This document shows positions 30,636 to 53,361 of a stretch of DNA of 64,000 bases, piece by piece (position 1 is the first letter of the stretch; every line of letters starts with the position of its first letter). The stretch comes from Aureimonas sp. ME7 (GTDB taxonomy: Bacteria > Pseudomonadota > Alphaproteobacteria > Rhizobiales > Rhizobiaceae). The stretch lies in NCBI RefSeq assembly GCF_903970965.1, contig NZ_CAJCKW010000002.1, positions 372,001 to 436,000 on the forward strand, read 5' to 3'. The notes under the pieces were generated by a model that was not told the DNA's origin, did no database searches, and was given only the letters and a program-made list of their open reading frames with translations. The position numbers and the translations under genes are program-made.

Positions 30636-30917
30636 TTGTCTTCAACCTTCGACCGGGTAGCGGACATCATCGCTGAAACCAGCGAGATCGACCGCGACCA
30701 GATCACCCCCGAAAGCCACACGATCGACGATCTGGGCATCGATTCCCTCGACTTCCTCGACATCGTGTTCGCGATCGACAAGGAATTCGGCATCAAGATC
30801 CCGCTGGAAAAGTGGACCCAGCGCGTCAACGAGGGCGAGGCCAACACGGAGGAATACTTCGTGATGAAGAACCTGTGCGCCAAGATCGACGAGCTGCGGG
30901 CCGCCAAGGCGGTCTGA
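30636..30917 (+). CDS. acpXL: Acyl carrier protein AcpXL for very-long-chain lipid A acylation
   Basis: A 93-residue specialised ACP that carries the 27-hydroxyoctacosanoate-type chain of rhizobial lipid A. The phosphopantetheine site is Ser37 in [14 protein letters not shown]. The sequence [19 protein letters not shown] is typical of AcpXL and unlike housekeeping AcpP. The start is TTG at 30636 with GAGGAAG 6 nt upstream. It is the first gene of the acpXL-fabF2-fabF1-adh-lpxXL cluster. Confidence 0.95.
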
Positions 30918-30993
30918 GGACGCTCGTCGTCGTTTCGTGATTCCCCGCGGGCGTCCCTGACGCCCGCGTCTTTGATTTCGGCGGGACCCCAAG

Positions 30994-32199: not shown

Positions 32200-32244
32200 A
32201 CGGCGGCTAAGCATGGGACAGGCCGGATCGCCGGCCGAGTACGG

Positions 32245-33540
<1,296 letters not shown>

Positions 33541-33562
33541 ACCGCCTGACGAAGGAAACCCC

Positions 33563-34606
33563 ATGCGAGCCCTGCAACTTGTCGCCGACCGCGACCTGAG
33601 GCGTGTCGATATCGCGGAGCCGGGCGAGCCGGGTCCGGGCGAGGTCACGGTCCGGATCCAGGTCGTCGCGCTCAATCACATCGACGTCTGGGGTTGGCGC
33701 GGAATGGCGTTCGCCAAGCGCAAGCTGCCGCTGACGATCGGCGCCGAAGCGTCCGGCATCGTCGAAGCGCTGGGCTCGGGCACGTCCGGCCTCGTGCCGG
33801 GGCAGCTCGTCTCGATCTACGGCGCGCGCACTTGCGGGCTTTGCCGGGCCTGCAGCGAGGGTCGCGACAATCTCTGCGAACACGTATCGGGCGTCCACGG
33901 CTTCCATCTCGACGGCTTCGCGCAGGAGCGCATCAATCTTCCCGCCCGCCTTCTCGTGCCCGCCCCTCCCGGCTGCGATGCGGTGGGCGCGGCGCTCGCA
34001 CCCGTCACTTTCGGCACGGTCGAGCACATGCTGTTCGACAACGCCAAGCTGGAGCCGGGCGAGACGATCCTCGTGCATGCCGGCGGCTCGGGCATCGGCA
34101 CGGCGGCGATCCAGCTCGCCAAGCGCCAGGGCGCGACCGTCATCACCACCGTCGGCTCGGACGACAAGATCGAGCCCGCCAAGGCGCTCGGCGCCGATCA
34201 TGTCATCAACTACCGCTCCGACCGGTTCGAAGGTGTCGTGCGCAAGCTGACGAAGAAGCGGGGTGTCGACGTCGTCTTCGAGCATGTGGGCGCCGACACG
34301 TTCGCCGGCTCCATGCTGTGTCTCAAGCGCGGCGGGCGGCTGGTGACATGCGGCTCGACGTCGGGCGTGTCGACGGAGGTCAACCTGATGATGCTGTTCC
34401 AGCAGCAGCTGAAGCTCATCGGCTCCTTCGGCTGCCGCATGGAGAACATGGCCGACGCCATGCAGAAGATGGCGCGCGGGTTGGTCAAGCCGGTGATCGA
34501 CACCGAGGTCGGCTTCGACGACATCGCGATCGCGCTGGAGCGCATGGAAGGCCGCCGCGTCTTCGGCAAGATCATCCTGCACGTGGACGACGCATCAGCG
34601 GCATGA
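33563..34606 (+). CDS. adhXL: Zinc-type alcohol dehydrogenase family protein of the XL cluster
   Basis: A 347-residue MDR superfamily oxidoreductase with a GroES-like N-terminal domain, the structural zinc lobe CGLCRACSEGRDNLC (~residues 91-105) and the nucleotide-binding HAGGSGIGTAAIQLAKRQG. The conserved position between fabF1 and lpxXL suggests it supplies reductase activity in very-long-chain synthesis, possibly as an enoyl-ACP reductase; this is inference. The ATG has GAAGGAAA upstream, and the stop overlaps lpxXL as ATGA. Confidence 0.9.
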   Translation: MRALQLVADRDLRRVDIAEPGEPGPGEVTVRIQVVALNHIDVWGWRGMAFAKRKLPLTIGAEASGIVEALGSGTSGLVPGQLVSIYGARTCGLCRACSEGRDNLCEHVSGVHGFHLDGFAQERINLPARLLVPAPPGCDAVGAALAPVTFGTVEHMLFDNAKLEPGETILVHAGGSGIGTAAIQLAKRQGATVITTVGSDDKIEPAKALGADHVINYRSDRFEGVVRKLTKKRGVDVVFEHVGADTFAGSMLCLKRGGRLVTCGSTSGVSTEVNLMMLFQQQLKLIGSFGCRMENMADAMQKMARGLVKPVIDTEVGFDDIAIALERMEGRRVFGKIILHVDDASAA

Positions 34607-35523
34607 AGCGGGGACTGGCGAAGCTTTGGAAGCAGCAGCGGCAGCTGCGCGATTGGCTGATCGCGCGGGCGCTCTTCACGCTGCTCGGCGTGCTTCGCCG
34701 CTTTCCCGCGCAAACCGGCCTTCGCATCGCCGATCGGCTCGCCCGCTGGATCGGACCGTGGACCTCGCGTCACCAGCTGGCGAAGGACAACCTTCGCCAA
34801 GCCTTTCCCGAGCGGGACGAAGCCTGGATCGAGGATCTTGCCCGGCGCAATTGGGGCCAGATGGGTCGCATCGCGGCCGAATACGTCTTCCTCGACGAGA
34901 TCTTCGACTTCGACCCAGACCGACAGACCGGCGAGGGGCTGATCGAGGTCGAAGGTATGGACACCTTCCTGGCTTTGCGCGACAACCCGAAGCCGATCGT
35001 CTTCTTCACCGCGCATCTCGGCTGTTTCGAGCTCCTGCCGATCTGCGCGGCGACGTTCGACCTGCACTTGACCGCCCTCTTCCGCCAGCCCAACAACCGC
35101 TATATCGCCCGCGAAGTCCTGTCGGCCCGCAAGACCAAGGGCGGCCATCTCGTGCCGTCAAAGGCGGGCGCCGCCTGGGCGCTGGCCGGCACGCTGGAGG
35201 GCGGCGGCAATGTCGGCATGCTGGTGGACCAGAAGTTCAAGCGCGGCGAGCTGACGACCTTCTTCGGGCGTCCCTGCCGGACGAACCCGCTCCTTCCCAA
35301 GCTCGCGCGCCAGTTCGACTGCGACGTCCATCCCGCGCGCTGCATCCGGCTGCCCGATGGGCGCTACCGCCTGTCACTGGAGCCGAAGCTCGAACTGCCT
35401 CGCACGCCGACCGGCGAGATCGACGTTCGGGCGAGTTGCCAGAAGCTCAACGATGTCGTGGAAGCCTGGGTGCGCGAGACACCGGAACAATGGATGTGGT
35501 TCCACCGCCGCTGGCAGATCTAG
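34603..35523 (+). CDS. lpxXL: Lipid A very-long-chain acyltransferase LpxXL
   Basis: A 306-residue inner-membrane acyltransferase of the LpxL/LpxM (LABLAT) family that transfers the C28 chain from AcpXL to lipid A. The HX4E catalytic motif is His138 to Glu143 (FFTAHLGCFELLP), followed by ALFRQPNNRYI and GMLVDQKFKRGELTTFFGRPC. The start overlaps the adh stop. The C-terminal ETPEQWMWFHRRWQ is the usual family ending. It is the last gene of the cluster. Confidence 0.94.
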   Translation: MKRGLAKLWKQQRQLRDWLIARALFTLLGVLRRFPAQTGLRIADRLARWIGPWTSRHQLAKDNLRQAFPERDEAWIEDLARRNWGQMGRIAAEYVFLDEIFDFDPDRQTGEGLIEVEGMDTFLALRDNPKPIVFFTAHLGCFELLPICAATFDLHLTALFRQPNNRYIAREVLSARKTKGGHLVPSKAGAAWALAGTLEGGGNVGMLVDQKFKRGELTTFFGRPCRTNPLLPKLARQFDCDVHPARCIRLPDGRYRLSLEPKLELPRTPTGEIDVRASCQKLNDVVEAWVRETPEQWMWFHRRWQI

Positions 35524-38424: not shown

Positions 38425-38628
38425 ATTTTGTCGCGGACGAAATGCGGCTCTGGCGATCTGAAATCGCGCGCGCCCACCTCGGCGGGAGGAATTTTGCCGA
38501 TCACTGCGCATTTGTCGGACTGTTGAAGTTCGATTGCTTCCCCTGATGGGGTCGAAGGCTTATGTCTGGCCAGGGGCGAACCGATGTGCCGGAGGATGCG
38601 GCTTGCGGATCGGACGGAAGGAGACGGA

Positions 38629-39585
38629 ATGAAGTGGAAGGACGCCATCTGGCCCTGCGTTGGTTTGGGCGCCGTCGTTCTCTCCTGCTGGCTGCTCTAC
38701 CATGAGATACGGGGTCTCTCCCTCGACGACGTCTGGGCGAGCTTCCAGAACATCGGCTGGCACCAGTGGCTGCTCTCCGTCTTCTGCGCGCTCTTCGCCT
38801 ATGCGATGCTGGCCTATTACGACAGGCTGGCGCTGCGTCACCTCGGCCGCAAGGTTTCGATGCCCTTCGTGGCCGCCACCTCGTTCACCACCTATGCCCT
38901 GTCCCATAATATCGGCGCTTCGGTCTTCTCCGGCGCGGTGGTGCGGTATCGCGCCTACAGCTCGCAGGGTCTGACACCCTCCGAGATCGCCCTCCTGATC
39001 GCCTTCTGCTCCTTCACGTTCGGGCTCGGCGTCCTGGTTCTGGCCGCCGTGACGCAGTTGATCGACCCGACGATGATCCGGCGATACGTGGATGTCGCGC
39101 CGATGGTGCCGATTTCGATCGGGGTCGTCGTTCTCGGTTTTGTCGGGCTCTACATTTTCGGCAGCCTGAAAGGGTTCCGCCCCCGCAAGATCGGGGGGTT
39201 TCTCCTCCAGTATCCCCGTCGGGACGTCGTTCTCCGCCAACTCGTCGCCGCGCCTTTGGAGATCGTCGCCGCGGCGGGCATCATCTACTTCGCCCTGCCC
39301 CCGGAAAGCCATCCCGGCTTCGTCGTGGTGCTGGCGATCTTCGTCATCTCCTTCTCGCTCGCCCTCGTCTCGCACGCGCCGGGCGGGCTCGGCGTGCTGG
39401 AGGTCACCTTCCTGACCGGCCTTTCGGACGTTCCGGAAACCGACGTCCTCGCCGCGCTCCTCGTCTTCCGGATCCTGTATCTGCTCCTGCCCTTCGCTGT
39501 GGCGATCATCTTCGTGCTCGTGTTCGAGCAGAACGCCATGCGTCAGCGCCGACGCGGTGCGGGCGGGGCGAGATCGCCGGGATGA
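38629..39585 (+). CDS. YbhN/UPF0104-type membrane protein (LPG-synthase-like flippase domain)
   Basis: A 318-residue polytopic membrane protein with about eight helices and the family segments YALSHNIGASVFSGAVVRYRAY (~97-118, containing the conserved Gly and Arg) and SHAPGGLGVLEVTF. Related to the transmembrane flippase part of MprF; stand-alone copies are thought to move lipids or lipid-linked precursors. ATG at 38629 is set by GGAGACGGA just upstream. It converges with the DUF1194 gene. Confidence 0.85.
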   Translation: MKWKDAIWPCVGLGAVVLSCWLLYHEIRGLSLDDVWASFQNIGWHQWLLSVFCALFAYAMLAYYDRLALRHLGRKVSMPFVAATSFTTYALSHNIGASVFSGAVVRYRAYSSQGLTPSEIALLIAFCSFTFGLGVLVLAAVTQLIDPTMIRRYVDVAPMVPISIGVVVLGFVGLYIFGSLKGFRPRKIGGFLLQYPRRDVVLRQLVAAPLEIVAAAGIIYFALPPESHPGFVVVLAIFVISFSLALVSHAPGGLGVLEVTFLTGLSDVPETDVLAALLVFRILYLLLPFAVAIIFVLVFEQNAMRQRRRGAGGARSPG

Positions 39586-40528: not shown

Positions 40529-42277
40529 ATGTCGCTCCCTCTCGATCCGTCGGTGCGAGCGCCCGTTTCCCTGGCACCGGGGTGGCGGCGAACGGCTCTG
40601 TCTCCCCTAGCGATCGGCCTTTTCGTTCTCGCAGCCTGCGCGATCCTTCTTTCGCTGCCGATCTCCCTGCCGCTCGGGCCCATGTACTGGGACGTCGTCG
40701 TTTACATCGACGGCGGATGGCGCGTTCTCTCCGGCCAGATCCCGGCCGTGGACTTCTTCGCCCCGATCGGCCCGCTCGGCTATTGGCTGTTCGCAGCCGG
40801 AATGAAGCTGTTTCCGCAGGCGCAGCCGGTCCTCTTGGCGCAGTGGATGGTAATGCCGATCACGCTCGGCGCGCTCCTGCCCGTCCTCCAGCGCGTGGAT
40901 CGGGGATCACGCGCCCTGGCGCTGGCGCTGCTCCTACCCTTCCTCGTGTTCCAGCTCCTGCCGACCAATCTCGAGCAGTACTCGACCTATCCTAGCTTCG
41001 ACGGCTACGGCATCTACAACCGCCACGTGGCGCAGCTCCTCTACCCCCTTGCGGTGGCGCTGGTGTTCGAGCGTCGCCAGCGTGTCCTTCTTTGCGTCGT
41101 CGGCGCGATCTGCACGGCCCTGTTCCTGACCAAGATCACGGGTTTCGTCGCCGGCGGAATGCTCTGCGCCTTCGCCTTCGCGGCGGGTCGCGTCCGGCTG
41201 CGGACGGCGCTCGGCGCGCTTCTCGGCTTTGCCGTCGTGCTCGGCCTGCTGCAGCTCGGGTTCGGGCTGACGACGGCCTACCTTTCGGACATAGCCCTTC
41301 TCGTTTCCATGAACGAAGGCGTCCTGCTTTCGCGCTTCCTGCAGGCCTCGTCGCTGCATTTCGGCATCCTCGCGTCCGGCTGCCTTCTCGTGCTCACCCT
41401 TCTTCTGACCGAGCGCCGCAGCGTTCTTGCTGATGCGCAGGCGCTTTCTCGCCATCCCTTGGCCGCGCGCGGCTGGACGACGCTTCTGGACCGCAACGCC
41501 TTCTGGCTGGCGGCCGCCTTGTTCGCCGGCCTGTTCTTCGAAACGCAGAACACAGGCAGCCAAGCCTTTCTCTTCGTCTGGCCGATCCTCCTCTCCATCG
41601 CCTGCAACGCGTCGCGCCACTCGAACCGAGGTACGGTCGCGGTTCTCGTTCTCGTCGCGGCGACCGCCATGCCGCCCTTCGTCAACGTCCTCCATCGCTC
41701 GTCGAGGGCGATCGTCGGGCAACTCGCCTACCCCCGCGTACCAGTCGCCGATCTCAAGATGCTGTTCAGCGTCACCCAGCGGCCCGAGGTTCTCGAACGT
41801 GCGACCGCGATGCTGGACAACTACGCGGGCTTCCCGGACACCTATCGCGATCTGGCGACCCGCGGACAACTCCCGACGTTCGGACTTTATTCGGACCTCG
41901 ACTTCCAGGCCTCCCTGCTCATGACCTTCGAGGAAGCGGTGGAGGCCGTCCGCGCCCTGGAGGCCGAGCGCGGCGTGCGGTTCGAGACGGTCATGAGCCT
42001 CAACTTCGTCAACCCCTTCCCCTACCTTCTGGAGCGCAAGGCGCCCCTTCACATCGCGATCGGGGCAGACCCGTTCCGCGCGGTACCGCCGCTCGACGCA
42101 CAGACGTTGGAAGCGGTGCGCGACGCCGACCTCATCCTGTATCCGACATGCCCGATCACCACGTCCAACGAGGAGCTGAAGGCGATCTACGCCGACGGCC
42201 TGAAGGGACGGACGACCGTGCCGCTCGGCCGGTGCTGGACGGGCTACGTGCGCGCCGGCCTTTCCGGCACGCTCTGA
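40529..42277 (+). CDS. Polytopic membrane protein, GT-C-like glycosyltransferase candidate
   Basis: A 582-residue protein with about ten to eleven helices up to residue ~390 and a soluble C-terminal domain of ~190 residues. Near residues 53-85 it reads YWDVVVYIDGGWRVLSG, then IPAVDFFAPIGPLGYWL, which resembles the first extracytoplasmic loop of GT-C (PMT/ArnT-like) enzymes that use polyprenyl-phosphate sugars and carry a catalytic Asp there. No named family is recognised with certainty. It converges on the DprE1/UbiA gene set and shares its terminator. Function as a pentosyl- or aminopentosyltransferase is inference. Confidence 0.7.
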   Translation: MSLPLDPSVRAPVSLAPGWRRTALSPLAIGLFVLAACAILLSLPISLPLGPMYWDVVVYIDGGWRVLSGQIPAVDFFAPIGPLGYWLFAAGMKLFPQAQPVLLAQWMVMPITLGALLPVLQRVDRGSRALALALLLPFLVFQLLPTNLEQYSTYPSFDGYGIYNRHVAQLLYPLAVALVFERRQRVLLCVVGAICTALFLTKITGFVAGGMLCAFAFAAGRVRLRTALGALLGFAVVLGLLQLGFGLTTAYLSDIALLVSMNEGVLLSRFLQASSLHFGILASGCLLVLTLLLTERRSVLADAQALSRHPLAARGWTTLLDRNAFWLAAALFAGLFFETQNTGSQAFLFVWPILLSIACNASRHSNRGTVAVLVLVAATAMPPFVNVLHRSSRAIVGQLAYPRVPVADLKMLFSVTQRPEVLERATAMLDNYAGFPDTYRDLATRGQLPTFGLYSDLDFQASLLMTFEEAVEAVRALEAERGVRFETVMSLNFVNPFPYLLERKAPLHIAIGADPFRAVPPLDAQTLEAVRDADLILYPTCPITTSNEELKAIYADGLKGRTTVPLGRCWTGYVRAGLSGTL

Positions 42278-42286
42278 GACAAGCGC

Positions 42287-42328
42287 AAACGACAAAGGCC
42301 GGATCCTTCGATCCGGCCTTTGTCGTTT
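42287..42328. terminator. Bidirectional terminator
   Basis: A perfect 18-bp stem (42287-42304 with 42311-42328), loop CCTTCG, with AAA on one side and TTT on the other. It separates the convergent membrane protein and aminotransferase genes and can serve both. Confidence 0.85.
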
Positions 42329-42347
42329 CCATTCGCGTTCGAAGGGC

Positions 42348-43802
42348 TCAGCCCATCTGCGTCTTGGCAAAGCTCGTCACGATCGACACGATGCCGCGCC
42401 CGAGAAGCGCATCCAGCGCGTCGCAGAACTGGTCCACGTTGTCATGGGAGCAGATCAGCGGCGGTTCGAGCCGGATGACGTTGCGGTTGTACTCGGTGAA
42501 CGCGACGAGGCAGTCGTAGTCCTTCAGGAGGAGCGCGCCGATGAAGCCGGACAGCGAACCTTTGAGCTTTTCGTCGAGGAGCGCCACCACGGGGCGCAGC
42601 GCGAAGGGCAGCGTCTGCGAGAAGTCGTGGAACTCGAGGCCCAGCATCAGCCCCCGCCCGCGCACGTCCTTGATGATCGACGGGTACTTGGCCTGGATCG
42701 CCTCCAGACGCTCCTTCAAGTAGGCGCCGACCACCTCGGCATTGCCGATCAGATCCTCGTCGTAGAGCGTGTTGAGCGCTTCGATCGAGGTGGCGCAGCC
42801 CTCGCCGATTCCCCCGAAGGTAGCGTGCGCGTGGATCATCGCGGTCTTCGGCGTACCATAGGCGCGCATGTAAACGTCGCGCCGCGCGACCATGGCAGCC
42901 ATTGCCGCCTTGCCGCCGCCGAAGCTCTTGGCGAGCGCCGTCACGTCCGGCACCACGCCGTGGTGCTCGAAGGCGTAGAAGCGTCCCGTGCGCCCGTATC
43001 CGCACTGCACCTCGTCGGCGACCCAGATCACCTTGTGCTCGTCGCAGAGCGCGCGAACGCCCTGCCAGTATTCGGTCGGCGCCTCGATGATGCCGCCCCC
43101 GCCCTGGACCGTTTCCAGCACGACGACGCCGACATCGGGGTCGGAGCGCACCACGGCGGTGAGCGCTGCCAGATCGCCGAAGGGCACGCGGTAGGTGTTC
43201 TCGACAAGCTTGAACTCGCCCTTGTAGAGCGGCGAATCCGTGATCGACAGGACACCCTTCGTCTTGCCGTGGAACGAGTTCTCGGCGTGGACGATCTTAC
43301 AATTCTTCCGACCGGATGCCCGCTCGGCCACCTTGATCGCGGCTTCCATCGCTTCCGAACCGGAAGAGCCGAGGAACACCATGTCGAGCTCGCCGGGGCT
43401 ACAGCTCGCGACGTTCTTCGCCAGCGCCGCCGCATATTGCGACAGGAAGGCGATGGCGATCTCGTGCCGCTTCTCGTCCTGGAACGTCTTGCGGGCGGCC
43501 AGGATGCGCGGGTGGTTGTGGCCGAAGGCGAGCGAGCCGAACCCGCCGAAGAAATCGAGGATCCGGCGTCCGTTCTGATCGATGTAGAACATGCCCTCGG
43601 CACGTTCCACTTTCACCTTGTGGAAGCCGAGCAGCTTCATGAAGTGGAACTGGCCGGGGTTGATATGCTCCTTGAACAGGTCCGCCATGGTGGCGACGTC
43701 CATCGCCTTGGCCTGGTCGAGGGTCAGCATGTCGGGCTTGGGCGGCCCCTGCCGGTGCGGCGCATCGAGCGAGGGCGCCAGGGTCGTCGGACGGTCCAGC
43801 AT
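42348..43802 (-). CDS. Class III PLP-dependent aminotransferase
   Basis: A 484-residue fold-type I aminotransferase. It shows FFGGFGSLAFGHNHPRI (~84-100), GSSGSEAMEAAIKVAERASG (PLP phosphate site), ENSFHGKTKGVLS, VVVLETVQGGGGII, WVADEVQCGYGRTGRFYAFE (ring-stacking and Asp sites) and the Schiff-base Lys in TALAKSFGGGKAAM. The family transfers amino groups to aldehydes or ketones such as acetylornithine, aminobutyrate or keto-sugars. The start lies 12 bp after the SDR stop, so it is co-transcribed with the DprE1-like set, and an amino-sugar or amino-polyol product is possible. Confidence 0.88.
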   Translation of the reverse strand: MLDRPTTLAPSLDAPHRQGPPKPDMLTLDQAKAMDVATMADLFKEHINPGQFHFMKLLGFHKVKVERAEGMFYIDQNGRRILDFFGGFGSLAFGHNHPRILAARKTFQDEKRHEIAIAFLSQYAAALAKNVASCSPGELDMVFLGSSGSEAMEAAIKVAERASGRKNCKIVHAENSFHGKTKGVLSITDSPLYKGEFKLVENTYRVPFGDLAALTAVVRSDPDVGVVVLETVQGGGGIIEAPTEYWQGVRALCDEHKVIWVADEVQCGYGRTGRFYAFEHHGVVPDVTALAKSFGGGKAAMAAMVARRDVYMRAYGTPKTAMIHAHATFGGIGEGCATSIEALNTLYDEDLIGNAEVVGAYLKERLEAIQAKYPSIIKDVRGRGLMLGLEFHDFSQTLPFALRPVVALLDEKLKGSLSGFIGALLLKDYDCLVAFTEYNRNVIRLEPPLICSHDNVDQFCDALDALLGRGIVSIVTSFAKTQMG

Positions 43803-43814
43803 CGGTTCAGATCC

Positions 43815-44828
43815 TCACTCGGCGGGTTGCGCGAAGGCGCCGGAAGGAACCGGCCGGCCTTCCTTTTTGGCACGATATTCGGAATAGGCGGCGATCAGCA
43901 TGTCCTCGTCGCGGTACTGTGGAACCCAGCCGAGGTCGCGCCGGCCCTTGGACACGTCGAGCACACATTCCTCGTCCGCGATCAGATACTGCTCCGGGTC
44001 CATCAGCGGCCGGTTCATCCAGTCGAGAAGGTCCAGCGTGCGCTTCACCGCAAAGCCCGGCGTTGGCAGGAGGATGGACTTCGAGCCGGCATGCCGGACG
44101 AGATCGCCGAGGAGCTTGCGCACCGGCGGCGGGTTCAGCGAGCCGAGATTGTAGGCCTCGTTCGGCACGTCGGCCTTCCAGGCGAGACGCGCCGCTTCGG
44201 CGCAGTCGAAGACGGAGATGAACTGGTAGGGGTTCTTACCCGAGCCGATCATTGGAACCGGCAGGTTCGCGTCGATCAGCTTGAACAGCTTTTCCAGGAT
44301 GCCGAGGCGCCCCGGCCCGATGATGAGGCGCGGGCGGAACAGCGAGATGCGCATACCGCGCTCCCGCCATTCGGCCGCCAGATGCTCGGTGTCGAGCTTC
44401 GACTGCCCGTATTCGCCGAGCGGAGCGACGGGGTGGTCCTCCGTCATCGGCGTCGTCACCGTATGGCCGTAGATCATGTCGGTGGTGAAGTGGACGAGCC
44501 GATCCGCGCCCGCGCGGCCCATCGCTTCCATGATGTGCTTCGTCCCGTCGTAGTTCACGGGATAGAAGAACTCGCGGCGCTTGGCGCGCACCTGGAGCGG
44601 CGACAGCATCTTGGCCGACAGGTTGTAGATCATGTCGCCCGGCGCGATCGGCACCGCGCCGACGGCGGCCGCGTCGGTCACGTCGACCGTCAGATGCGTC
44701 GAGCGGGCGTAATGGGCAAGATCGCTTCGCGCGATGTCGGCCACCACGACCTCCTCGCCATCGGCGACGAGACGCTGTGCCAGATGGCGGCCGACGAAGC
44801 CGTCGCCGCCGAAGATCACGTGCTTCAT
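43815..44828 (-). CDS. NAD-dependent epimerase/dehydratase (extended SDR)
   Basis: A 337-residue extended SDR with the dinucleotide loop FGGDGFVGRHLAQRL, HFTTDMIYGHT and the catalytic YGQSK (YxxxK), then RPRLIIGPGRLGILEKLF. It acts on a nucleotide- or lipid-linked sugar. In the mycobacterial pathway an SDR (DprE2) reduces the 2-keto intermediate; this protein is longer and of a different SDR class, so it may be an analogue rather than an orthologue. The start overlaps the SMR-like gene as ATGA. Confidence 0.88.
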   Translation of the reverse strand: MKHVIFGGDGFVGRHLAQRLVADGEEVVVADIARSDLAHYARSTHLTVDVTDAAAVGAVPIAPGDMIYNLSAKMLSPLQVRAKRREFFYPVNYDGTKHIMEAMGRAGADRLVHFTTDMIYGHTVTTPMTEDHPVAPLGEYGQSKLDTEHLAAEWRERGMRISLFRPRLIIGPGRLGILEKLFKLIDANLPVPMIGSGKNPYQFISVFDCAEAARLAWKADVPNEAYNLGSLNPPPVRKLLGDLVRHAGSKSILLPTPGFAVKRTLDLLDWMNRPLMDPEQYLIADEECVLDVSKGRRDLGWVPQYRDEDMLIAAYSEYRAKKEGRPVPSGAFAQPAE

Positions 44829-45265
44829 CGAAGGGTTCCTTCCGTGGAATGAATGTCGGCCCGCGCCTCGACCTCGGCGGCCGCCGGCGCCTGGCTGCCG
44901 CCGCGCGCGATGAAGACGGTGCCGAGGCAGATCAGGGCGATGCCCGCGATCGCCGATGCGTTGATCTGTTCGCCGAACAGGGCCCAGGCCGCGAAGGCGA
45001 CCACCACGTAGGCGAGGCTGAGAAACGGGTAGGCGTAGCTGAGATCGACCTTGGACAGGACGAAGAGATGGGAGGCCATCGAGACGACGAAGACGCAAAG
45101 CCCCAGAAACACGAACGGGCTGAAGACGATCGACAGGATCTTCACCACCGGGTTGACGCCCGAAAAGCTCAAGGGGCCGAGCTGCATCATCCCGTATTTC
45201 AGGAGCATCTGCGCCGCTGCGTTGGTCAGCACCGTGAACAGGATGAAGGGGATGTAGCGGCTCAT
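44825..45265 (-). CDS. SMR/EamA-like small membrane transporter (ArnE/F-like)
   Basis: A 146-residue protein with four hydrophobic helices (residues ~5-22, 44-66, 74-97 and 103-121) and the SMR-type segment QMLLKYGMMQLG and LSKVDLSYAYPFLSLAYV. The C-terminal tail is hydrophilic and probably cytoplasmic. ArnE/ArnF proteins of this superfamily flip undecaprenyl-phosphate-aminoarabinose. Its place beside polyprenyl-phosphate-pentose enzymes suggests a similar flippase role. It is coupled to the SDR gene. Confidence 0.82.
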   Translation of the reverse strand: MSRYIPFILFTVLTNAAAQMLLKYGMMQLGPLSFSGVNPVVKILSIVFSPFVFLGLCVFVVSMASHLFVLSKVDLSYAYPFLSLAYVVVAFAAWALFGEQINASAIAGIALICLGTVFIARGGSQAPAAAEVEARADIHSTEGTLR

Positions 45266-45396
45266 GCGCGAAGCCTTCCCGGCTCGTTTCGAATGGGGCG
45301 GATCGTGACGCTTGCCGCCTCCGATCGGGTTAAGCCTTCAGCGAAAAGGCGCTGTATCGGACGATTTCCGTTGGGGAAGGTCACCGAAACCTTGCC

Positions 45397-46746
45397 TCAG
45401 GCCGCGATGCCGACCGGCGCCCGGTGATCGGCCAACCGAAGCGCCGTGCGCGCCCAGAAGTCGGAGCGGATCGCGGGATCGCGCATGGCTTCCAGGCGCC
45501 GCCAGTTCGGGAACGAGGCTTCGAAGGTTTCGGGCGACATGCGCGCGTCCTTGTAGGGGTTCACCGCGCCGCCGGCCTCGATCGTGATACGGTCGAGCTC
45601 GGCCATGAGCTTCAGCGTGCGCTCGCCGCGATGGGGGAAGTCGAGCGTCAGCGTGTAGCCCGGCCGGGGAAAGCTGAAGGTGCCGGGACTGTCGAGGTCG
45701 CCGAAGCGTTTCAAAACGGTAAGGAACGAGCCCTGCCCAGCCGCCACCGCGCACTCCATTAAGGCGCGCACGGTCTCGTAGCCGTTTTCCATCGGCACGG
45801 CGCTCTGGTGCTGGAGCAACCCGTTCGGGCCGTAGAGGCGGTTCCAGTCGCGCACGCGATCGAGAGGGTAGAAGAAGCTGTCGAACGGAACCGACGTGAC
45901 GACCTCGGCCCGGCGCAGCTTGCGGAAGTTGACCTCGTTGAACGCCCGGAGCGCGACCCCTCGCAAGGGACTGATCGGCGGCGTCCAGGGAACGGAGGCG
46001 ACGGGCGGGCGCGCTTCGCCCTGCCGGTCGCCCGATCCGGCATGGTCGCCGCAGATCAGATGACCACGCCCGAAACTGTTCCCACGCGCCAGCTGGTCGA
46101 TCCAGGCGACGGCGTATTCATACGCGTCGTCGGCGTCGCCCGCGCGCGCGAAGTAGTCGGCGAGGTTGGATAGGCGCACCGTCCGCTGACGAATGGTCAG
46201 CGAGGGCACCGCCATCAGCGCGAGGCGGACCCGGGTGACGATGCCCGTCAGCCCCATGCCACCGATCGTGGCGGCGAACATGTCGGCGTTCTCGTCCCGC
46301 GAACAGGTCAGAACGGTTCCGTCCGAGCGCAGAAGCGTGAAGCCCTCGATCCAGCGCCCGATCGTTCCGCGCCGGTGATGGTTCTTGCCGTGGACGTCGT
46401 TGGCCAGCGCGCCGCCGAGCGTGACGAACTGCGTGCCCGGCGTCACCGGCAGGAACCAGCCGTGCGGCGCGACGTGCCGCGTGATCTCGTGCAGCATCAC
46501 ACCGGCGTCGACCTCGATCGCGCCTGTTTCGCGGTCGAACGAATGGATGCGCCGGGGCCCCCGCATGTCGATCAGGGTGCCGGTGTCGTTGAGACAGGTG
46601 TCGCCGTAGGAGCGCCCGTTGCCGCGCGGCAGGAGCCACAAGCCCTTGTGCGGTTCAGGAAAGGTATCCCCCACTCCCATCGCGATCGCGCGGCGACCGC
46701 CGGCAGGCGCCGGCGTCCGGCCCCAGTTGCCGTAGGGGTCAGACAT
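45397..46746 (-). CDS. DprE1-like FAD-dependent polyprenyl-phosphoryl-ribose oxidase
   Basis: A 449-residue flavoprotein very like mycobacterial DprE1, which oxidises the 2'-OH of decaprenyl-phosphoryl-ribose. Matching stretches are RGNGRSYGDTCLN (41-53), VTPGTQFVTLGGALANDVHG with HGKNHH (119-124), LTLDFPHRG and the catalytic-Lys region AVNPYKDAR (Lys399). The residue equal to DprE1 Cys387, the benzothiazinone target, is Thr367. It overlaps the upstream HAD-UbiA gene by 8 bp. Substrate by homology; not proven. Confidence 0.85.
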   Translation of the reverse strand: MSDPYGNWGRTPAPAGGRRAIAMGVGDTFPEPHKGLWLLPRGNGRSYGDTCLNDTGTLIDMRGPRRIHSFDRETGAIEVDAGVMLHEITRHVAPHGWFLPVTPGTQFVTLGGALANDVHGKNHHRRGTIGRWIEGFTLLRSDGTVLTCSRDENADMFAATIGGMGLTGIVTRVRLALMAVPSLTIRQRTVRLSNLADYFARAGDADDAYEYAVAWIDQLARGNSFGRGHLICGDHAGSGDRQGEARPPVASVPWTPPISPLRGVALRAFNEVNFRKLRRAEVVTSVPFDSFFYPLDRVRDWNRLYGPNGLLQHQSAVPMENGYETVRALMECAVAAGQGSFLTVLKRFGDLDSPGTFSFPRPGYTLTLDFPHRGERTLKLMAELDRITIEAGGAVNPYKDARMSPETFEASFPNWRRLEAMRDPAIRSDFWARTALRLADHRAPVGIAA

Positions 46747-48181
46747 AGGCCGCGACCAGGAACATGGCGGCGCCCAGCACCATCATGATCTGCGAGCGCC
46801 AGTCCTGCATGATGAAGACGATCGGATCGTCATACATCTGGCGGCGGCGCGCGAGCACCCAGATCCGCACGATGATGTAGAGAACCAGCGGGCAGAGCGG
46901 CCAGAGAATGTAGGGGTGGCGGTAGAGCTCGCTCACCGCGTCGCTGTCGATATAAAGCGCCAGGACGAGGACGGAGGCGAAGCCCGACGCCATGCCGGCC
47001 TGCCCGACCGTGTCGAGATCCATCTCCACATAGCCGCGCCCGGTGGACGAGCGGTTCGCCCCGGCCTCGAACTCGGAGATCTCGACGAAGCGCTTCACCA
47101 GCGCCAGCGACAGGAAGAAGAAGATCGAAAAGGCCAGAAGCCAGAAGGACTCGGTGGACTGAACCGCCGTCGCGCCCGCGAGAATCCGCAGCGTGTAAAG
47201 GCCCGCCAGCGTCAGGACGTCGATCAGCAGCATCCGTTTCAGCGCGAGGGAATAGGCCGTCGTCGCGACGAGATAGGCGGCAAGGATCGCCGTGAAGCCG
47301 ATCGGAAGCAGGAGCGACAGCGCGACGGAGCCGACCAGCAGTCCGGCCGCCAGTCCGAGCCCGACGGGAATGGGCACGCGCCCGCTGGCGAAGGGCCGGT
47401 TGCGCTTGGTCTTGTGCCGCCGGTCGGCGGCCAGATCCAGAAGATCGTTCAAGATGTAGACCGACGAGGCGGCGAGCGAGAAGCTGAGAAACGCGACGAG
47501 GCCGCTCAGCACCATGAAGACGTCGAGGAACTCGTGGTTGAGCGCGACCGGTACGAAGACGAGGAGGTTCTTCAGCCATTGATGCGGTCGCATGGCCTTC
47601 ACCATGGCGCGCAACGTCGAGCGTCCGTCCTCGATCAGCCGGGCGGGGCGGGCAGCGCTCGCCTGCCAGCGGCGCGCGGAGCGATCGGGCTGCACCACGG
47701 TCGCCGTTTCGGCAGCTTCGAACAGGCAGATATCGTCCTGCGAATTGCCGAAATAGTCGAACGCCCCGCCCTCGCAGCGCGCCTGGATGCGGTCGAGCTT
47801 GGTGCGCGCAGAAAGGTTGGTGGTTCGATCGCTGGCCATCACCTCGTCGAACAGGCCGAGGTGGTCGGCGACGGCCTTGGCAAGGCGCTCGTTGGAAGCG
47901 GTCGCCAGAACGATCCGACGGCCCGCCTCCTGCTCGGCCTGAAGCGCGGCCACGACCTCCTCGCGATAGGGAAGCGTCGCGGCGTCGATGTCGATGCGGG
48001 CGGCGAGTTCGTCCTTGATGACCGCCTTGCCCCGGAACATCCATCCGAACAGGCGCCAGAACGACAGAGGCTCCTGCCGGGCGAAGAGGAAGAGGCTTTC
48101 CCAAAGGAGATCGCCACGGATCAAGGTCCCGTCGAGATCGACGAACAGCGGCCGTTCGGTTCTCGTGACGAAAGTATCCAT
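46739..48181 (-). CDS. HAD phosphatase-UbiA prenyltransferase fusion (DPPR synthase-like)
   Basis: A 480-residue fusion. Residues ~10-185 form a HAD phosphatase (DLDGTL at 15-20, ATASNERL near 93-100, FGNSQDD near 144-150). Residues ~195-480 form a UbiA membrane domain with RPHQWLKN (198-205) and NDLLDLAADRRHKTKRNRPF (245-264), close to mycobacterial Rv3806c, which joins phosphoribosyl-PP to decaprenyl phosphate. The HAD part could remove the 5-phosphate, giving polyprenyl-phosphoryl-ribose in one polypeptide. It is the first gene of the minus-strand set. Confidence 0.87.
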   Translation of the reverse strand: MDTFVTRTERPLFVDLDGTLIRGDLLWESLFLFARQEPLSFWRLFGWMFRGKAVIKDELAARIDIDAATLPYREEVVAALQAEQEAGRRIVLATASNERLAKAVADHLGLFDEVMASDRTTNLSARTKLDRIQARCEGGAFDYFGNSQDDICLFEAAETATVVQPDRSARRWQASAARPARLIEDGRSTLRAMVKAMRPHQWLKNLLVFVPVALNHEFLDVFMVLSGLVAFLSFSLAASSVYILNDLLDLAADRRHKTKRNRPFASGRVPIPVGLGLAAGLLVGSVALSLLLPIGFTAILAAYLVATTAYSLALKRMLLIDVLTLAGLYTLRILAGATAVQSTESFWLLAFSIFFFLSLALVKRFVEISEFEAGANRSSTGRGYVEMDLDTVGQAGMASGFASVLVLALYIDSDAVSELYRHPYILWPLCPLVLYIIVRIWVLARRRQMYDDPIVFIMQDWRSQIMMVLGAAMFLVAAYV

Positions 48182-49607: not shown

Positions 49608-50078
49608 TCAGCAGGCGTTGTACTTGCGGTCGAGCGCGTCGATCGCCTCGACGTTCGGACCGGAGCTGCTGGCCGGGTCGAACTCGGATTCCAGATACTT
49701 GTCGACGATCGCCTTGGCGAGCTCGGGACCGATGACGCGCGAGCCCATGGTGATGATCTGCGCGTTGTTGCTCTTGGCGGCGCGCTCCGCCGAATAGGTG
49801 TCGTGCGTCAGCGCGGCGCGGATGCCGGGCACCTTGTTGGCCGAGATGTTGACGCCGATGCCCGTGCCGCAGCACAGGATGGCGCGGTCGTACTCGCCGT
49901 CCACCACCGCGCGTGCGATGCGCTCGGAGGTCGTGGCGTAGCGCTCGGACGCACCGTCCGGCGCATCGCTGGCGTCCACCACCGTCAGGTCCGAGCGCGA
50001 GCCGAGATGCTCCTTGATGGCTTGAACCAAGGGCTTTCCGGCGCTGTCGCCACCGATCACGATCTTCATGGATGTCAT
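49608..50078 (-). CDS. rpiB: RpiB/LacAB family sugar-phosphate isomerase, EryI-like
   Basis: A 156-residue isomerase. The N-terminus reads [12 protein letters not shown] rather than the common GCDHAG, a form I associate with EryI of the erythritol pathway (D-erythrulose-4-phosphate to D-erythrose-4-phosphate). The catalytic Cys70 is in LCCGTGIG, and His92 in [20 protein letters not shown] is also conserved. ATG at 50078 or 50069 starts it. Ribose-5-phosphate isomerase activity is the alternative. Candidate operators lie 60-90 bp upstream. Confidence 0.88.
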
Positions 50079-50138
50079 CCGTTCTGGAAAAAGGGCGGAA
50101 ACCGCTCCGCCGATGCCGTGGCGCGAGGTCGCGCCTTC

Positions 50139-50168
50139 CGTTCATAATATCAGCCACCCGTTCAAACG
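50139..50168 (-). promoter_or_regulatory. CGTTCAT-type repeats upstream of rpiB
   Basis: CGTTCATAAT at 50139-50148 and CGTTCAAACG at 50159-50168, 20 bp apart, lie between rpiB and the end of the regulator gene. They share the CGTTCA core with the palindromes before the regulator/transketolase genes. Confidence 0.5.
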
Positions 50169-50185
50169 ATCAAGAGTGGATCGAT

Positions 50186-51190
50186 CTACGACCCGGCCCG
50201 TCCCGCCTGATCGAGCGCCAGAATCCCATGCGCGTTGGCGAGCGACGTCGCGATCACATCCACCGCGCCGGTGCGCAGGGCCGCCAGGATCGGCATGGTC
50301 TTCGTCGGCTCGGAAGCGATGGCGATGACGTTGGGGATGGCTCGGATCTCGTCGAGGCGAAGCCCGACGACCCGTCCGCCGATGATCTCGTTTCGCTCCC
50401 GGCCTTCCAGATCGTAGAAGTCGTAGCCCATGAGATCGCCGACGACGCCGGCGGCGCGCGCAGCGAGGATTTCCTCACGCTTGAACCAGCCCATGCGCAC
50501 CATATGGCTTTCCTCGCCGAGATCGCCGATGCCGACTAGAGCGAAGTCGGCGCTGCGGCCGAGATCCAGCGTCTGCTTCACGGTGGGATTGCGCTGAAGC
50601 GCGTCGCGTAAGCCGGCGTCAGGCACATAGGCCGGCGCATAGAGCGTCTCGGGCAGACCGCCGAAACGGCGCGCCAGCTTGCGGCAGATATGGTCGGCAT
50701 TGGCCGGCTCTCCCGCCTGATGCGCGCCGCCCGTGGCCGAAACGAAGGTCGCCGCTTCCAGGAACGCGCGCCCCCGCGTGTCCGCTACCGCCGCCACGTT
50801 GCGTCCCATTCCGACCGCGACCGTCGCCCCTTCGAAAAGGTGGCGCTCCAGATAGTCCGACACCAACAGCGCCACCTCCGCGCGCTGCGTGTCGGCGTCG
50901 CGCCGGTCCACCGCGATCAAGGCGGCCTTGACGCCGAAGCGCTCGCGCAGCCGCCGCTCGAGTTCCGCCTCGACCGCGCGGTGGACGCGAATGCGCACGT
51001 CCACGATGCCGGCGTCGCGCGCCTGCCGAAGGAGGCGGTTGATCTTCATGCGCGACAAGCCGAGTTCGGCCGCAATCTCGGCCTGGGTCGCCTGCCCCTC
51101 GTAGTAGCGGCGAGCGACCTTCATCATCGTGTCGATCTCGGATGGTACTATGTCGTCCAAGAAGCCATCACCGGTCCGGCAGCCGTTCAT
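50186..51190 (-). CDS. SorC/EryD-type sugar-binding transcriptional regulator
   Basis: A 334-residue regulator with an HTH (GQATQAEIAAELGLSRMKINR, from residue ~33) and a SorC effector domain (GATVAVGMGRNVAAVADT, ADFALVGIGDLGEESHMVR, IAIASEPTKTMPILAAL). The first ATG is at 51190; the start MMKVARRYYEG (ATG at 51127 or 51124) is also reasonable. It lies between rpiB (same strand) and transketolase (divergent). Operator-like palindromes lie at both ends, so it probably controls the whole sugar-phosphate module and itself. Confidence 0.88.
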   Translation of the reverse strand: MNGCRTGDGFLDDIVPSEIDTMMKVARRYYEGQATQAEIAAELGLSRMKINRLLRQARDAGIVDVRIRVHRAVEAELERRLRERFGVKAALIAVDRRDADTQRAEVALLVSDYLERHLFEGATVAVGMGRNVAAVADTRGRAFLEAATFVSATGGAHQAGEPANADHICRKLARRFGGLPETLYAPAYVPDAGLRDALQRNPTVKQTLDLGRSADFALVGIGDLGEESHMVRMGWFKREEILAARAAGVVGDLMGYDFYDLEGRERNEIIGGRVVGLRLDEIRAIPNVIAIASEPTKTMPILAALRTGAVDVIATSLANAHGILALDQAGRAGS

Positions 51191-51216
51191 ATGATACGAA
51201 CGCGTTCATATGAACG
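51184..51216. promoter_or_regulatory. Tandem operator palindromes CGTTCATATGAACG
   Basis: A perfect 14-bp palindrome CGTTCATATGAACG at 51203-51216 follows directly on an imperfect partner at 51184-51202 with CGTTC and GAACG arms. The pair sits at the 5' end of the regulator gene and 142 bp before the transketolase start, ideal for shared control. Confidence 0.65.
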
Positions 51217-51357
51217 TTTTTCACGGGGCCACGATTGATTCAAGCGCCCACTCGTGTTTGTGGTGTGCACAACGGTTGGGAGGCCTGTCGCATCGACTTG
51301 GCGATTCCGATCATTCGCTCGCGTTTCGCGCGGGCCAGCGAAGGGAACCTGGACGCC

Positions 51358-53361
51358 GTGGATACCGCACAACTCCCCCATCTCGACCCCCAGGAAATCC
51401 GCGCGATGGCGAGCGGCATCCGCTTCCTGTCGATGGATGCGGTGGAAGCGGCCAATTCGGGCCATCCCGGCATGCCGCTCGGCATGTCCGACGCGGCAAC
51501 CGTCCTGTTCAGCCGCTTCATGAAGTTCGACGCTGCCCGCCCCCATTGGGCGGATCGCGACCGCTTCGTTCTGTCGGCCGGCCACGGCTCGATGCTGCTC
51601 TACAGCCTCCTGCACCTCACGGGTTACCAGGACTTTTCGATCGACGAGCTGAAGCGCTTCCGCCAGCTTCATTCCAAGGCCGCCGGCCATCCCGAGTTCG
51701 GCGAGGGCGCCGGCATCGAGACGACCACCGGTCCGCTCGGCCAGGGCCTTGCCACAGCGGTGGGCCTCGCGCTCGGCGAAAAGATCCTGCGCGAGCGCTT
51801 CGGCGAGGAGCTTTGCTCGCACTACACCTACACGATCGCCGGCGACGGCTGCTTCATGGAAGGCGTCAGCCAGGAGGCGATCTCGATCGCCGGCCACCTG
51901 AAGCTTTCTAAGTTGATCGTCCTTTGGGACGACAACCGCATCACGATCGACGGTGCGACCGACCTTTCGACCTCGGACGATCTGGCCAAGCGCGTCGAGG
52001 CGTCCGGCTGGAACACGGCTGCGGTGGACGGCCATGATCCCCAAGCCGTCGCCGCCGCAATCGAAGCGGCGCGCGGCTCGGACAAGCCGACGCTGATCGC
52101 CTGCCGCACCACGATCGGCTACGGCGCGGGCAAGAAGGCCGGCACGTCCGGCGTCCACGGCTCGCCCATCGGCGCCGAGGGCATCGCCTATGCCCGCGAA
52201 TACTTCACCTGGGCTCATGAGCCGTTCGTTCTCCCGGATGTCGTCACCGATTTCTGGAAGGCGGTCGGCAGCCGGGGCGCGGCGGAAGCCGACGCCTGGG
52301 AAAAGCGCCATGCGGCGTCCGCCCATGCCGCCGACTGGGACCGCGTGATGAAGGATGGCTTCGACGGCGATCCGGCCGCGATCCTTGCCGAGGTCAAGCG
52401 CAAGTTCGCCTCCGAGGCGCCCTCCGTCGCCACGCGCAAGGCGGGCCAGACGGTGATCGAGGCGCTATCGGCCGCATCCGCCAAGCTGATCGGCGGCTCG
52501 GCCGACCTGTCGGGCTCGAACCTGACCAAGGGTGGCGCCGCCAAGCCGATCACCCCGTCGGACGCCACCGGCAACTACATCTACTACGGCGTGCGAGAGC
52601 ACGGCATGGCGGCCGTGATGAACGGCCTGTCGCTCCATGGCGGCTTCACGCCCTTCGGCGGCACATTCCTGTGCTTTGCCGACTATGCCCGGCCCGCGAT
52701 GCGGCTTTCGGCGCTGATGCACCAGCCGGTGGTCTACGTGATGACGCACGATTCGATCGGTCAGGGCGAGGACGGCCCGACGCACCAGCCGATCGAGCAC
52801 CTTGCGTCGCTGCGCGCCATGCCGAACATGCTGGTCATGCGTCCGGCCGACGGCGTCGAAACGGCCGAGTGCTGGGAAGCCGCCCTCCGGGCGACGAAGT
52901 CGCCGACGACGATGGTCCTGTCGCGCCAGAACCTGAAGACGCTGCGCACCGGCGCCACGGACGAGAACCTATCGGCCAAGGGCGGCTACGTCCTCGAGGA
53001 GGCCGAGGGCGGCGCGCGCCAGGTGACGATCCTCGCCACCGGGTCCGAGGTCGAGATCGCGGTCGCCGCGCGCAAGATCCTGGCGGACGCCGGGGTTCGC
53101 GCCGCCGTCGTGTCCCTGCCCTGCTGGGAGCTTTTCGCGCAGCAGCCGAAGAGCTACCGCGACGAGGTTCTCGGATCGGCGCCGCGCATCGCGGTGGAGG
53201 CGGCGAGCCCCTTCGGCTGGACGCGCTTCGTGGCCGACGAGGACGACGTCGTCGGCCTCACCACGTTCGGCGCCTCGGCGCCCGGCGCCGACCTCTACAA
53301 GCATTTCGGGCTGACGCCGGAGAAGGTCGCCGACAAGGCGCGCTCCAAGGTCCAGGGCTGA
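51358..53361 (+). CDS. tkt: Transketolase
   Basis: A 667-residue thiamin-diphosphate enzyme that moves two-carbon units between sugar phosphates. It shows AANSGHPGMPLGMSD (~36-50), GPLGQGLATAVGLALGEK, the ThDP/Mg motif GDGCFMEGVSQEA, GTSGVHGSPIG and the C-terminal GQGEDGPTHQPIEHLASLR. The start is read as GTG at 51358 with AAGGGAA upstream; this gives the family length, whereas the longer open frame from 51235 runs through the promoter region. It heads a plus-strand run with TPI and aldolase. Confidence 0.94.
   Translation: MDTAQLPHLDPQEIRAMASGIRFLSMDAVEAANSGHPGMPLGMSDAATVLFSRFMKFDAARPHWADRDRFVLSAGHGSMLLYSLLHLTGYQDFSIDELKRFRQLHSKAAGHPEFGEGAGIETTTGPLGQGLATAVGLALGEKILRERFGEELCSHYTYTIAGDGCFMEGVSQEAISIAGHLKLSKLIVLWDDNRITIDGATDLSTSDDLAKRVEASGWNTAAVDGHDPQAVAAAIEAARGSDKPTLIACRTTIGYGAGKKAGTSGVHGSPIGAEGIAYAREYFTWAHEPFVLPDVVTDFWKAVGSRGAAEADAWEKRHAASAHAADWDRVMKDGFDGDPAAILAEVKRKFASEAPSVATRKAGQTVIEALSAASAKLIGGSADLSGSNLTKGGAAKPITPSDATGNYIYYGVREHGMAAVMNGLSLHGGFTPFGGTFLCFADYARPAMRLSALMHQPVVYVMTHDSIGQGEDGPTHQPIEHLASLRAMPNMLVMRPADGVETAECWEAALRATKSPTTMVLSRQNLKTLRTGATDENLSAKGGYVLEEAEGGARQVTILATGSEVEIAVAARKILADAGVRAAVVSLPCWELFAQQPKSYRDEVLGSAPRIAVEAASPFGWTRFVADEDDVVGLTTFGASAPGADLYKHFGLTPEKVADKARSKVQG

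What the first reader, a model, noticed from the sequence alone, without database searches (positions are those of the whole stretch)
40529..48181. A DprE1/UbiA-based pentose-lipid gene set with flippase, aminotransferase and GT-C candidates
The minus-strand genes encode a HAD-UbiA fusion like Rv3806c, a DprE1-like oxidase, an SMR/ArnE-like small transporter, an extended SDR and a class III aminotransferase, all close or overlapping. A GT-C-like membrane protein converges on them. Together they could make polyprenyl-phosphoryl-ribose, epimerise or aminate it, flip it, and transfer the pentose to a surface glycan. DprE1/DprE2/UbiA homologues are known from mycobacteria and from Azorhizobium Nod-factor arabinosylation, but a version with aminotransferase and flippase in one set is not one I know. 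A product such as an amino-pentose on LPS is inference.
Basis: partly seen in the sequence, partly recalled or inferred. Interest (0 to 1): 0.75.

Follow-up and report, generated by a model that had tools for sequence, protein, structure and literature searches.

The report
Lipid-linked aminopentose operon in Aureimonas
A conserved block of genes in plant- and sea-associated bacteria looks like a factory that builds a five-carbon sugar on a membrane lipid, swaps one hydroxyl for an amine, flips it outside and attaches it to the cell surface; the amine-adding enzyme seems to take the place of the usual finishing enzyme of the arabinose route known from tuberculosis bacteria.

Summary
Observation confirmed. 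On the minus strand: HAD-UbiA, DprE1-like oxidase, ArnE/F-like small transporter, GalE-like SDR, class III aminotransferase (AT3); a GT-C converges. AT3-led searches found 15 orthologues (own included), 15 of 15 clustered with UbiA and DprE1. The basic plan is known: Kelly 2024 three-component pentofuranose systems. The aminotransferase is new as far as my searches show. Each of 38 AT3 genomes checked has exactly one DprE1; six lost the operon copy but carry another, non-orthologous DprE1 elsewhere. DprE2 exceeds its cut-off in 0 of 21 AT3 genomes; G043, an AT3-less member of the same DprE1 clade, has DprE2. Two AT3+DprE1 genomes lack the SDR. Best reading: AT3 replaces DprE2 and aminates the C2 ketone made by DprE1, giving polyprenyl-P-2-amino-2-deoxypentofuranose. 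The GT-C fold's best match is ArnT. No chemistry was tested; two genomes keep a DprE1/DprE2-like pair, which weakens the case. New variant of a known kind.

The parts
46739..48181 (-). HAD-UbiA fusion: predicted polyprenyl-phosphate 5-phosphoribosyltransferase plus phosphoribose phosphatase
   Evidence: PRK08238 627.5 bits over cut-off 351; PDB 8j8j E 1.2e-27; DLDGT at 15, NDLLDLAAD at 245, KRFVE at 363
45397..46746 (-). DprE1-like FAD oxidase, predicted C2 oxidation of the lipid-linked ribose
   Evidence: NCBIfam DprE1 335.3 bits, below its cut-off of 500; PDB DprE1 chains E about 2e-64; HGKNHH and YKDAR
44825..45265 (-). small multidrug-resistance-size transporter like ArnE/ArnF, predicted flippase
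   Evidence: EamA 28.7 bits (cut-off 28.2); ArnF 54.9 bits and ArnE 39.6 bits, below cut-offs; EmrE E 0.001
43815..44828 (-). extended SDR, GalE-like, predicted accessory epimerase or reductase
   Evidence: Epimerase 5.3e-33; GalE chains best in PDB; GGDGFVG at 7, TTD at 115, YGQSK at 140
42348..43802 (-). class III PLP aminotransferase (AT3), predicted to aminate the DprE1 ketone
   Evidence: Aminotran_3 5.2e-84; chain 4ppm (aminotransferase; PigE by the NCBIfam hit) E 2.1e-75 and putrescine aminotransferase; DEVQ 263, LAKS 290; no NCBIfam cut-off reached among the 25 families shown of 69
40529..42277 (+). GT-C glycosyltransferase candidate, convergent with the operon

Best explanation
It is a variant of the three-component pentofuranose glycosylation system in which a class III aminotransferase (AT3) takes the place of DprE2. 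Step 1: HAD-UbiA transfers ribose 5-phosphate from PRPP to polyprenyl phosphate and dephosphorylates it. Step 2: the DprE1-like oxidase oxidises the C2 hydroxyl to a ketone. Step 3: AT3 transaminates that ketone, giving polyprenyl-phosphoryl-2-amino-2-deoxy-pentofuranose. Step 4 (optional): the GalE-like SDR adjusts another centre, most simply C3, as Citrobacter ORF13 does. Step 5: the ArnE/F-like transporter flips the lipid. Step 6: a GT-C moves the aminopentose to an envelope acceptor. Steps 1, 2, 5 and 6 rest on homology, motifs and fold; step 3 on genetic dependence and DprE2 exclusion; the exact carbon, the stereochemistry, step 4 and the acceptor are inferred.
For: AT3-led searches: 15 orthologues (own included), 15 of 15 clustered with UbiA and DprE1. 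All 38 AT3 genomes checked have exactly one DprE1 match: 31 of the 32 genomes (E <= 1e-25; the 32nd, G043, lacks AT3 and also has one) and 7 of 7 (E <= 1e-10). In the 6 genomes whose operon lacks DprE1 it lies elsewhere and is not of the operon's clade. AT3 is paired with UbiA of other lineages in G158, G182 and G401 and with a DprE1 of another lineage in G401, where DprE1 and AT3 overlap by 4 bases. DprE2 is above its cut-off in 0 of 21 AT3 genomes, and in G043, whose DprE1 nests in the AT3 clade but which lacks AT3. G161 and G183 have UbiA, DprE1 and AT3 without any SDR orthologue and without DprE2, so the ketone has no other dedicated partner there. AT3 and SDR are the best conserved members (mean pairwise identity 0.84 and 0.83, against 0.68 UbiA and 0.66 DprE1, in the 36 UbiA-fetched AT3 loci plus the window).
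Against: No enzyme was assayed. In G579 and G580 the only DprE1 sits in a separate set with its own UbiA and a DprE2-like SDR (240 and 246 bits, under the 267 cut-off), so AT3 there must share its ketone or use another. Three of the four AT3-less genomes were picked because their loci hold DprE2, so the contrast is not an unbiased test; G043 is one case only. Genomes hold other classical SDRs (weak DprE2-model matches in G064, G095, G119, G582) that could reduce the ketone. AT3's nearest solved relatives are PigE-type and putrescine aminotransferases, not sugar enzymes. The window DprE1 scores below the DprE1 equivalog cut-off, so its C2 regiochemistry is inferred.
Confidence: 0.55

Rival explanations
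1. The SDR does DprE2's job, so DprE1 + SDR make polyprenyl-P-arabinofuranose (or an epimer), and AT3 aminates another position (C3 or C5) after an oxidation by the SDR or an unknown enzyme.
For: SDR is present in 49 of the 51 AT3 loci read here and is as conserved as AT3; G043 keeps UbiA-DprE1-transporter-SDR without AT3; class III enzymes often act on terminal aldehydes, which would suit C5 (recalled).
Against: G161 and G183 have DprE1 and AT3 with no SDR orthologue at E <= 1e-15 and no DprE2-model match at E <= 1e-25; G043, the genome with SDR but no AT3, does have a DprE2, which would be superfluous.
Confidence: 0.22
2. AT3 makes an amine outside the sugar pathway (amino acid, polyamine or lipid headgroup) and is only co-inherited with the block.
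For: Its best relatives are PigE and putrescine or acetylornithine aminotransferases.
Against: AT3 stays linked through four gene orders plus deletion variants and through exchange of UbiA and DprE1 lineages; no orthologue was found away from UbiA in the 385 class, 198 order and 299 phylum genomes sampled (partly overlapping samples; the 35% match in G572 has no UbiA in 20 kb and I do not count it as an orthologue).
Confidence: 0.12
3. Ordinary arabinofuranose or xylofuranose decoration in which AT3 does not change the transferred sugar.
For: The rest of the block equals published systems (PMC11127046).
Against: DprE2 is missing above cut-off in 21 of 21 AT3 genomes, though two have a DprE2-like gene just below it; AT3 is among the two most conserved genes.
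Confidence: 0.08
4. AT3 is a hopanoid aminotransferase (HpnO-like) aminating ribosylhopane.
For: HpnO is a class III enzyme that aminates a ribose-derived aldehyde (recalled; no HpnO sequence was compared). Three of 23 AT3 genomes (G183, G401, G584) do have squalene-hopene cyclase.
Against: The cyclase is missing from the other 20 of 23, the window's own among them.
Confidence: 0.02

Closest known systems
Three-component pentofuranose glycosylation system (Citrobacter youngae O1/O2; Kelly et al. 2024, PMC11127046; abstract, passages and sections 7, 9, 11, 12 read)
   Same: HAD-UbiA fusion, small flippase with similarity to ArnE (the authors call it MATE family), GT-C, and an SDR epimerase or DprE1/E2 as sugar-changing auxiliaries.
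   Different: Here an aminotransferase is added, DprE2 is gone, DprE1 and a GalE-like SDR occur together. The word aminotransferase does not occur in that paper's main text (supplements not searched).
Mycobacterial decaprenyl-P-arabinose pathway (Rv3806c UbiA, DprE1, DprE2, Rv3789, Emb/Aft)
   Same: UbiA domain and DprE1 homologues; GT-C of the AftA/ArnT fold type.
   Different: HAD fused, DprE2 absent, aminotransferase present, ArnE/F-like transporter.
Azorhizobium / Rhizobium sp. IRBG74 noeC(N)HOP Nod-factor arabinosylation (PMC5080398, passages seen)
   Same: Rhizobial route to lipid-linked D-Araf with orthologues of the mycobacterial steps; separate phosphatase gene proposed (noeN).
   Different: No aminotransferase is named for that operon in the passages seen.
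Arn pathway (undecaprenyl-P-4-amino-arabinose to lipid A; pathway details recalled)
   Same: Works like it: a lipid-linked aminopentose, an ArnE/F-like flippase and a GT-C whose best structural match is ArnT.
   Different: Amination would happen on the lipid-linked furanose made from PRPP, by a class III enzyme, not on UDP-4-keto-pentose by ArnB.

Membership tests
Three-component pentofuranose system | UbiA-family polyprenyl phosphoribosyltransferase with the NDxxDxxxD loop | tested here: met
   motif at 245 and in 46 of 46 UbiA sequences of AT3 loci examined
Three-component pentofuranose system | HAD phosphoribose phosphatase domain with catalytic Asp | tested here: met
   HAD 3.1e-13, DLDGT at 15; 38 of 46 relatives have the literal D[LVM]DGT (the 8 misses are altered motifs or, in L115 and L118, probably late start calls); G401 has no HAD half
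Three-component pentofuranose system | small ArnE-like flippase | tested here: met
   EamA just above cut-off, ArnF/ArnE below cut-off; transport itself not testable
Three-component pentofuranose system | GT-C fold transferase | tested here: met
GT136 | sequence membership of CAZy GT136 and C-terminal CBM | not tested
   no GT136 sequence was on hand
Three-component pentofuranose system | pentofuranose side chains on a glycan | not testable with these tools
   needs chemistry
Decaprenyl-P-arabinose pathway | DprE1 | tested here: inconclusive
   clear homologue with conserved motifs, but 335.3 bits against an equivalog cut-off of 500
Decaprenyl-P-arabinose pathway | DprE2 | tested here: not met
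   no match at E <= 1e-25 in the window's genome; 0 of 21 AT3 genomes over the cut-off
Arn (Ara4N) pathway | ArnB-type sugar aminotransferase | tested here: not met
   AT3 matches only Aminotran_3 (class III) in Pfam at E <= 0.001
Hopanoid HpnO | squalene-hopene cyclase in the genome | tested here: not met
   absent from G000 and from 20 of 23 AT3 genomes in all

The most novel reading that the evidence does not exclude
A new biosynthetic branch: bacteria aminate the DprE1 ketone directly on the lipid carrier to make polyprenyl-phosphoryl-2-amino-2-deoxy-pentofuranose, a furanose counterpart of undecaprenyl-P-Ara4N, which evolved by swapping DprE2 for a class III aminotransferase; it would put a positively charged pentofuranose on the envelope of many Hyphomicrobiales.
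Probability: 0.5. Interest if true: 0.78.

Novelty: new variant of a known kind. Interest (0 to 1): 0.6.

Why it matters
If right, it adds amination to the known fates of lipid-linked ribofuranose (ribose, xylose, arabinose) and gives a second, independent route to an envelope aminopentose besides the Arn pathway. It predicts a sugar class that no listing in my ten paper searches describes as a bacterial lipid-linked donor, in plant- and sea-associated genera. It makes a clean test possible: what DprE1's ketone becomes when DprE2 is absent. DprE1 is also a tuberculosis drug target, so a natural relative that hands its ketone to a transaminase is of interest for its mechanism.

Tried and rejected

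My gene caller was trained on ten window genes and fails on low-G+C loci: UbiA was not called in L071, L090, L108, L111, L116 and L124, and L084, L086 and L102 gave no rows. L116 (G043) was read by tblastn and a plain ORF list instead.
Full report
WHAT IS THERE. The window lies in a genome close to Aureimonas (Aurantimonadaceae): its HAD-UbiA is 81% identical to those of Aureimonas sp. AU22 and A. phyllosphaerae; the genome is G000, 4.38 Mb. UbiA and DprE1 overlap by 8 bases, transporter and SDR by 4. Motifs expected for activity (which motifs matter is recalled, or for UbiA and HAD taken from PMC11127046) are present: DLDGT, NDxxDxxxD and KRxxE in HAD-UbiA, HGKNHH and YKDAR in DprE1, DEVQ and LAKS in the aminotransferase, GGDGFVG and YGQSK in the SDR.

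WHAT IS ALREADY KNOWN. Kelly et al. 2024 (PMC11127046; abstract, passages and sections 7, 9, 11, 12 read) show that Citrobacter ORF15, a HAD-UbiA fusion, makes polyprenyl-P-ribofuranose from PRPP; ORF14, a small protein with similarity to ArnE, is the proposed flippase; ORF12 is a GT-C (GT136); ORF13, a GalE-like SDR, turns ribose to xylose; arabinose systems carry DprE1/E2 homologues instead. So a gene set with HAD-UbiA, flippase, epimerase and GT-C is not new. 'Aminotransferase' does not occur in that paper's main text. The noeC(N)HOP Nod-factor operon was seen in passages of PMC5080398. Ten paper searches, limited to open-licence PMC papers, showed no listing that describes an aminotransferase in a DprE1/UbiA pathway or a lipid-linked aminopentofuranose; I read listings only, apart from the two papers named, and three of the listings were cut (15 of 79, 15 of 441 and 10 of 325 papers).

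CONSERVATION. A UbiA-led scan of named genomes returned 80 loci (the best of 157 relatives); 36 hold AT3 (35 Aurantimonadaceae, one Roseibium) and in 36 of 36 the order UbiA-(DprE1)-transporter-SDR-AT3 is kept on one strand, with DprE1 in 30. Because that scan started from UbiA, I searched from AT3 as well. In the order, 10 of 198 genomes have an AT3 orthologue (67-73% identity besides the own), all 10 among the 46 of 199 with a UbiA match at E <= 1e-60. The phylum search (5 of 299 genomes matched, own and G105 among them) added G678, G718 and G814; the class search (3 of 385 matched: own, G401, and G572 at 35% identity) added G401; the plasmid collection (1 record matched) added a Neorhizobium sp. 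SOG26 replicon. In all 15 of these orthologues (own included, G572 not counted) UbiA and DprE1 lie in the same cluster. The arrangement differs: collinear in 9 of 15 (own, G105, G064, G095, G119, G678, G718, G814, Neorhizobium); UbiA-DprE1-transporter-AT3 in G183; UbiA-DprE1-AT3 in G161; divergent halves in G038; UbiA-(membrane protein c70)-transporter-SDR-AT3 with DprE1 at the far end in G158 and G182; transporter-SDR-UbiA-DprE1-AT3 in G401, with a HAD-less UbiA. Rearrangement without loss argues for a functional unit. Over the 36 UbiA-fetched loci plus the window, AT3 and SDR are the best conserved proteins (mean pairwise identity 0.84 and 0.83; transporter 0.72, UbiA 0.68, DprE1 0.66 over 31 sequences, GT-C 0.54 over 19).

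AT3 DEPENDS ON DPRE1. Six AT3 operons lack DprE1 (L045, L047, L050, L053, L062, L065). Each of these six genomes has exactly one DprE1 elsewhere. As control, 31 AT3 genomes with DprE1 in the cluster have exactly one copy each, so a second copy is not a background habit (32 genomes, the other being AT3-less G043; one search adds G585, also one). In a tree of 71 DprE1 proteins, 43 of the 44 AT3-linked ones form one clade (99/93) that also holds G043; the 44th (G401) and the relocated copies lie outside it: four relocated copies group with G401's, two lie nearer to the AT3 clade but outside it. The UbiA tree shows that the UbiA partners of G158, G182 and G401 also come from other lineages (the G401 branch is very long). 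So AT3 follows the activity, not one particular gene. If regain is excluded, the operon losses are at least four separate events on the UbiA tree (L045+L047, L050, L053, L065; L062 was not in that tree).

AT3 AND DPRE2 NEARLY EXCLUDE EACH OTHER. The alphaproteobacterial DprE2 model (NF005489, cut-off 267 bits) is exceeded in 0 of 21 AT3 genomes and in 4 of 4 AT3-less genomes. Three of those four (G058, G077, G093) were chosen because their loci carry canonical sets, so only G043 is an unprompted case; the Fisher value computed should therefore not be leaned on. G043 is telling: its DprE1 nests inside the AT3 clade, it has UbiA-DprE1-transporter-SDR and the GT-C, no AT3 match, and a DprE2 elsewhere. 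Against this, G579 and G580 carry AT3 and also a separate set of UbiA, an 8-TM protein, DprE1 and a DprE2-like SDR (240 and 246 bits) that holds their only DprE1.

THE SDR IS NOT WHAT AT3 NEEDS. G161 and G183 have DprE1 and AT3 but no SDR orthologue at E <= 1e-15 and no DprE2-model match at E <= 1e-25. There the ketone that DprE1 is expected to make has only AT3 as a dedicated partner. This is the main reason for placing the amine at C2. It assumes that these DprE1 proteins oxidise C2 as the mycobacterial enzyme does; the window protein keeps the aligned motifs but lies below the curated DprE1 cut-off.

MODEL AND LIMITS. I take the set as a three-component pentofuranose system in which AT3 replaces DprE2 and makes polyprenyl-P-2-amino-2-deoxypentofuranose. 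Shown: gene content, dependence of AT3 on DprE1 in the genomes sampled, near-exclusion of DprE2, dispensability of the SDR in two genomes, GT-C fold of the model. Inferred: the reaction of AT3, the position and configuration of the amine, the role of the SDR, the acceptor. The ArnT-like fold and the neighbouring lipid A acylation cluster (window 30636-35523) hint at lipid A, but that neighbourhood was not tested for conservation and is weak evidence.

Noticed in passing
window 30636-35523 (+): Acyl carrier protein, two ketoacyl synthases, zinc dehydrogenase and a lipid A acyltransferase: looks like the AcpXL/LpxXL very-long-chain lipid A cluster (name recalled), about 5 kb from the GT-C gene.
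   Followed up: partly
window 49608-53361: RpiB, a sugar-binding-domain regulator and a transketolase just upstream of UbiA; in near relatives L034-L037 RpiB and the regulator keep this place. They could affect ribose 5-phosphate supply.
   Followed up: partly
window 38584-39585 (+): MprF-like flippase domain protein (LPG_synthase_TM; MprF 197.9 bits, below cut-off) close to the GT-C gene, kept there in eight Aureimonas loci (L033-L035, L037-L040, L064).
   Followed up: no
L041, L072, L113, L156-L158: An FkbM-type methyltransferase follows the c18 GT-C behind AT3, perhaps a further decoration of the sugar (Pfam scan for L113 only; L041 and L072 by clustering; L156-L158 by similar start).
   Followed up: no
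L162, L163 (G579, G580): Separate UbiA, 8-TM protein, DprE1, DprE2-like set in the same genome as an AT3 operon: two pentose-lipid routes in one cell.
   Followed up: partly
L077, L089, L091, L099, L105: HAD-UbiA followed by an SMR-type transporter with a GT-C-like protein (c28; the one scanned, from L105, hits PMT just under its cut-off) on the other side: perhaps a minimal ribose-type three-component set in Roseobacter relatives.
   Followed up: no
L155 (G572): A 33-35% identical aminotransferase in a 20-kb stretch that looks like exopolysaccharide genes, without UbiA.
   Followed up: no
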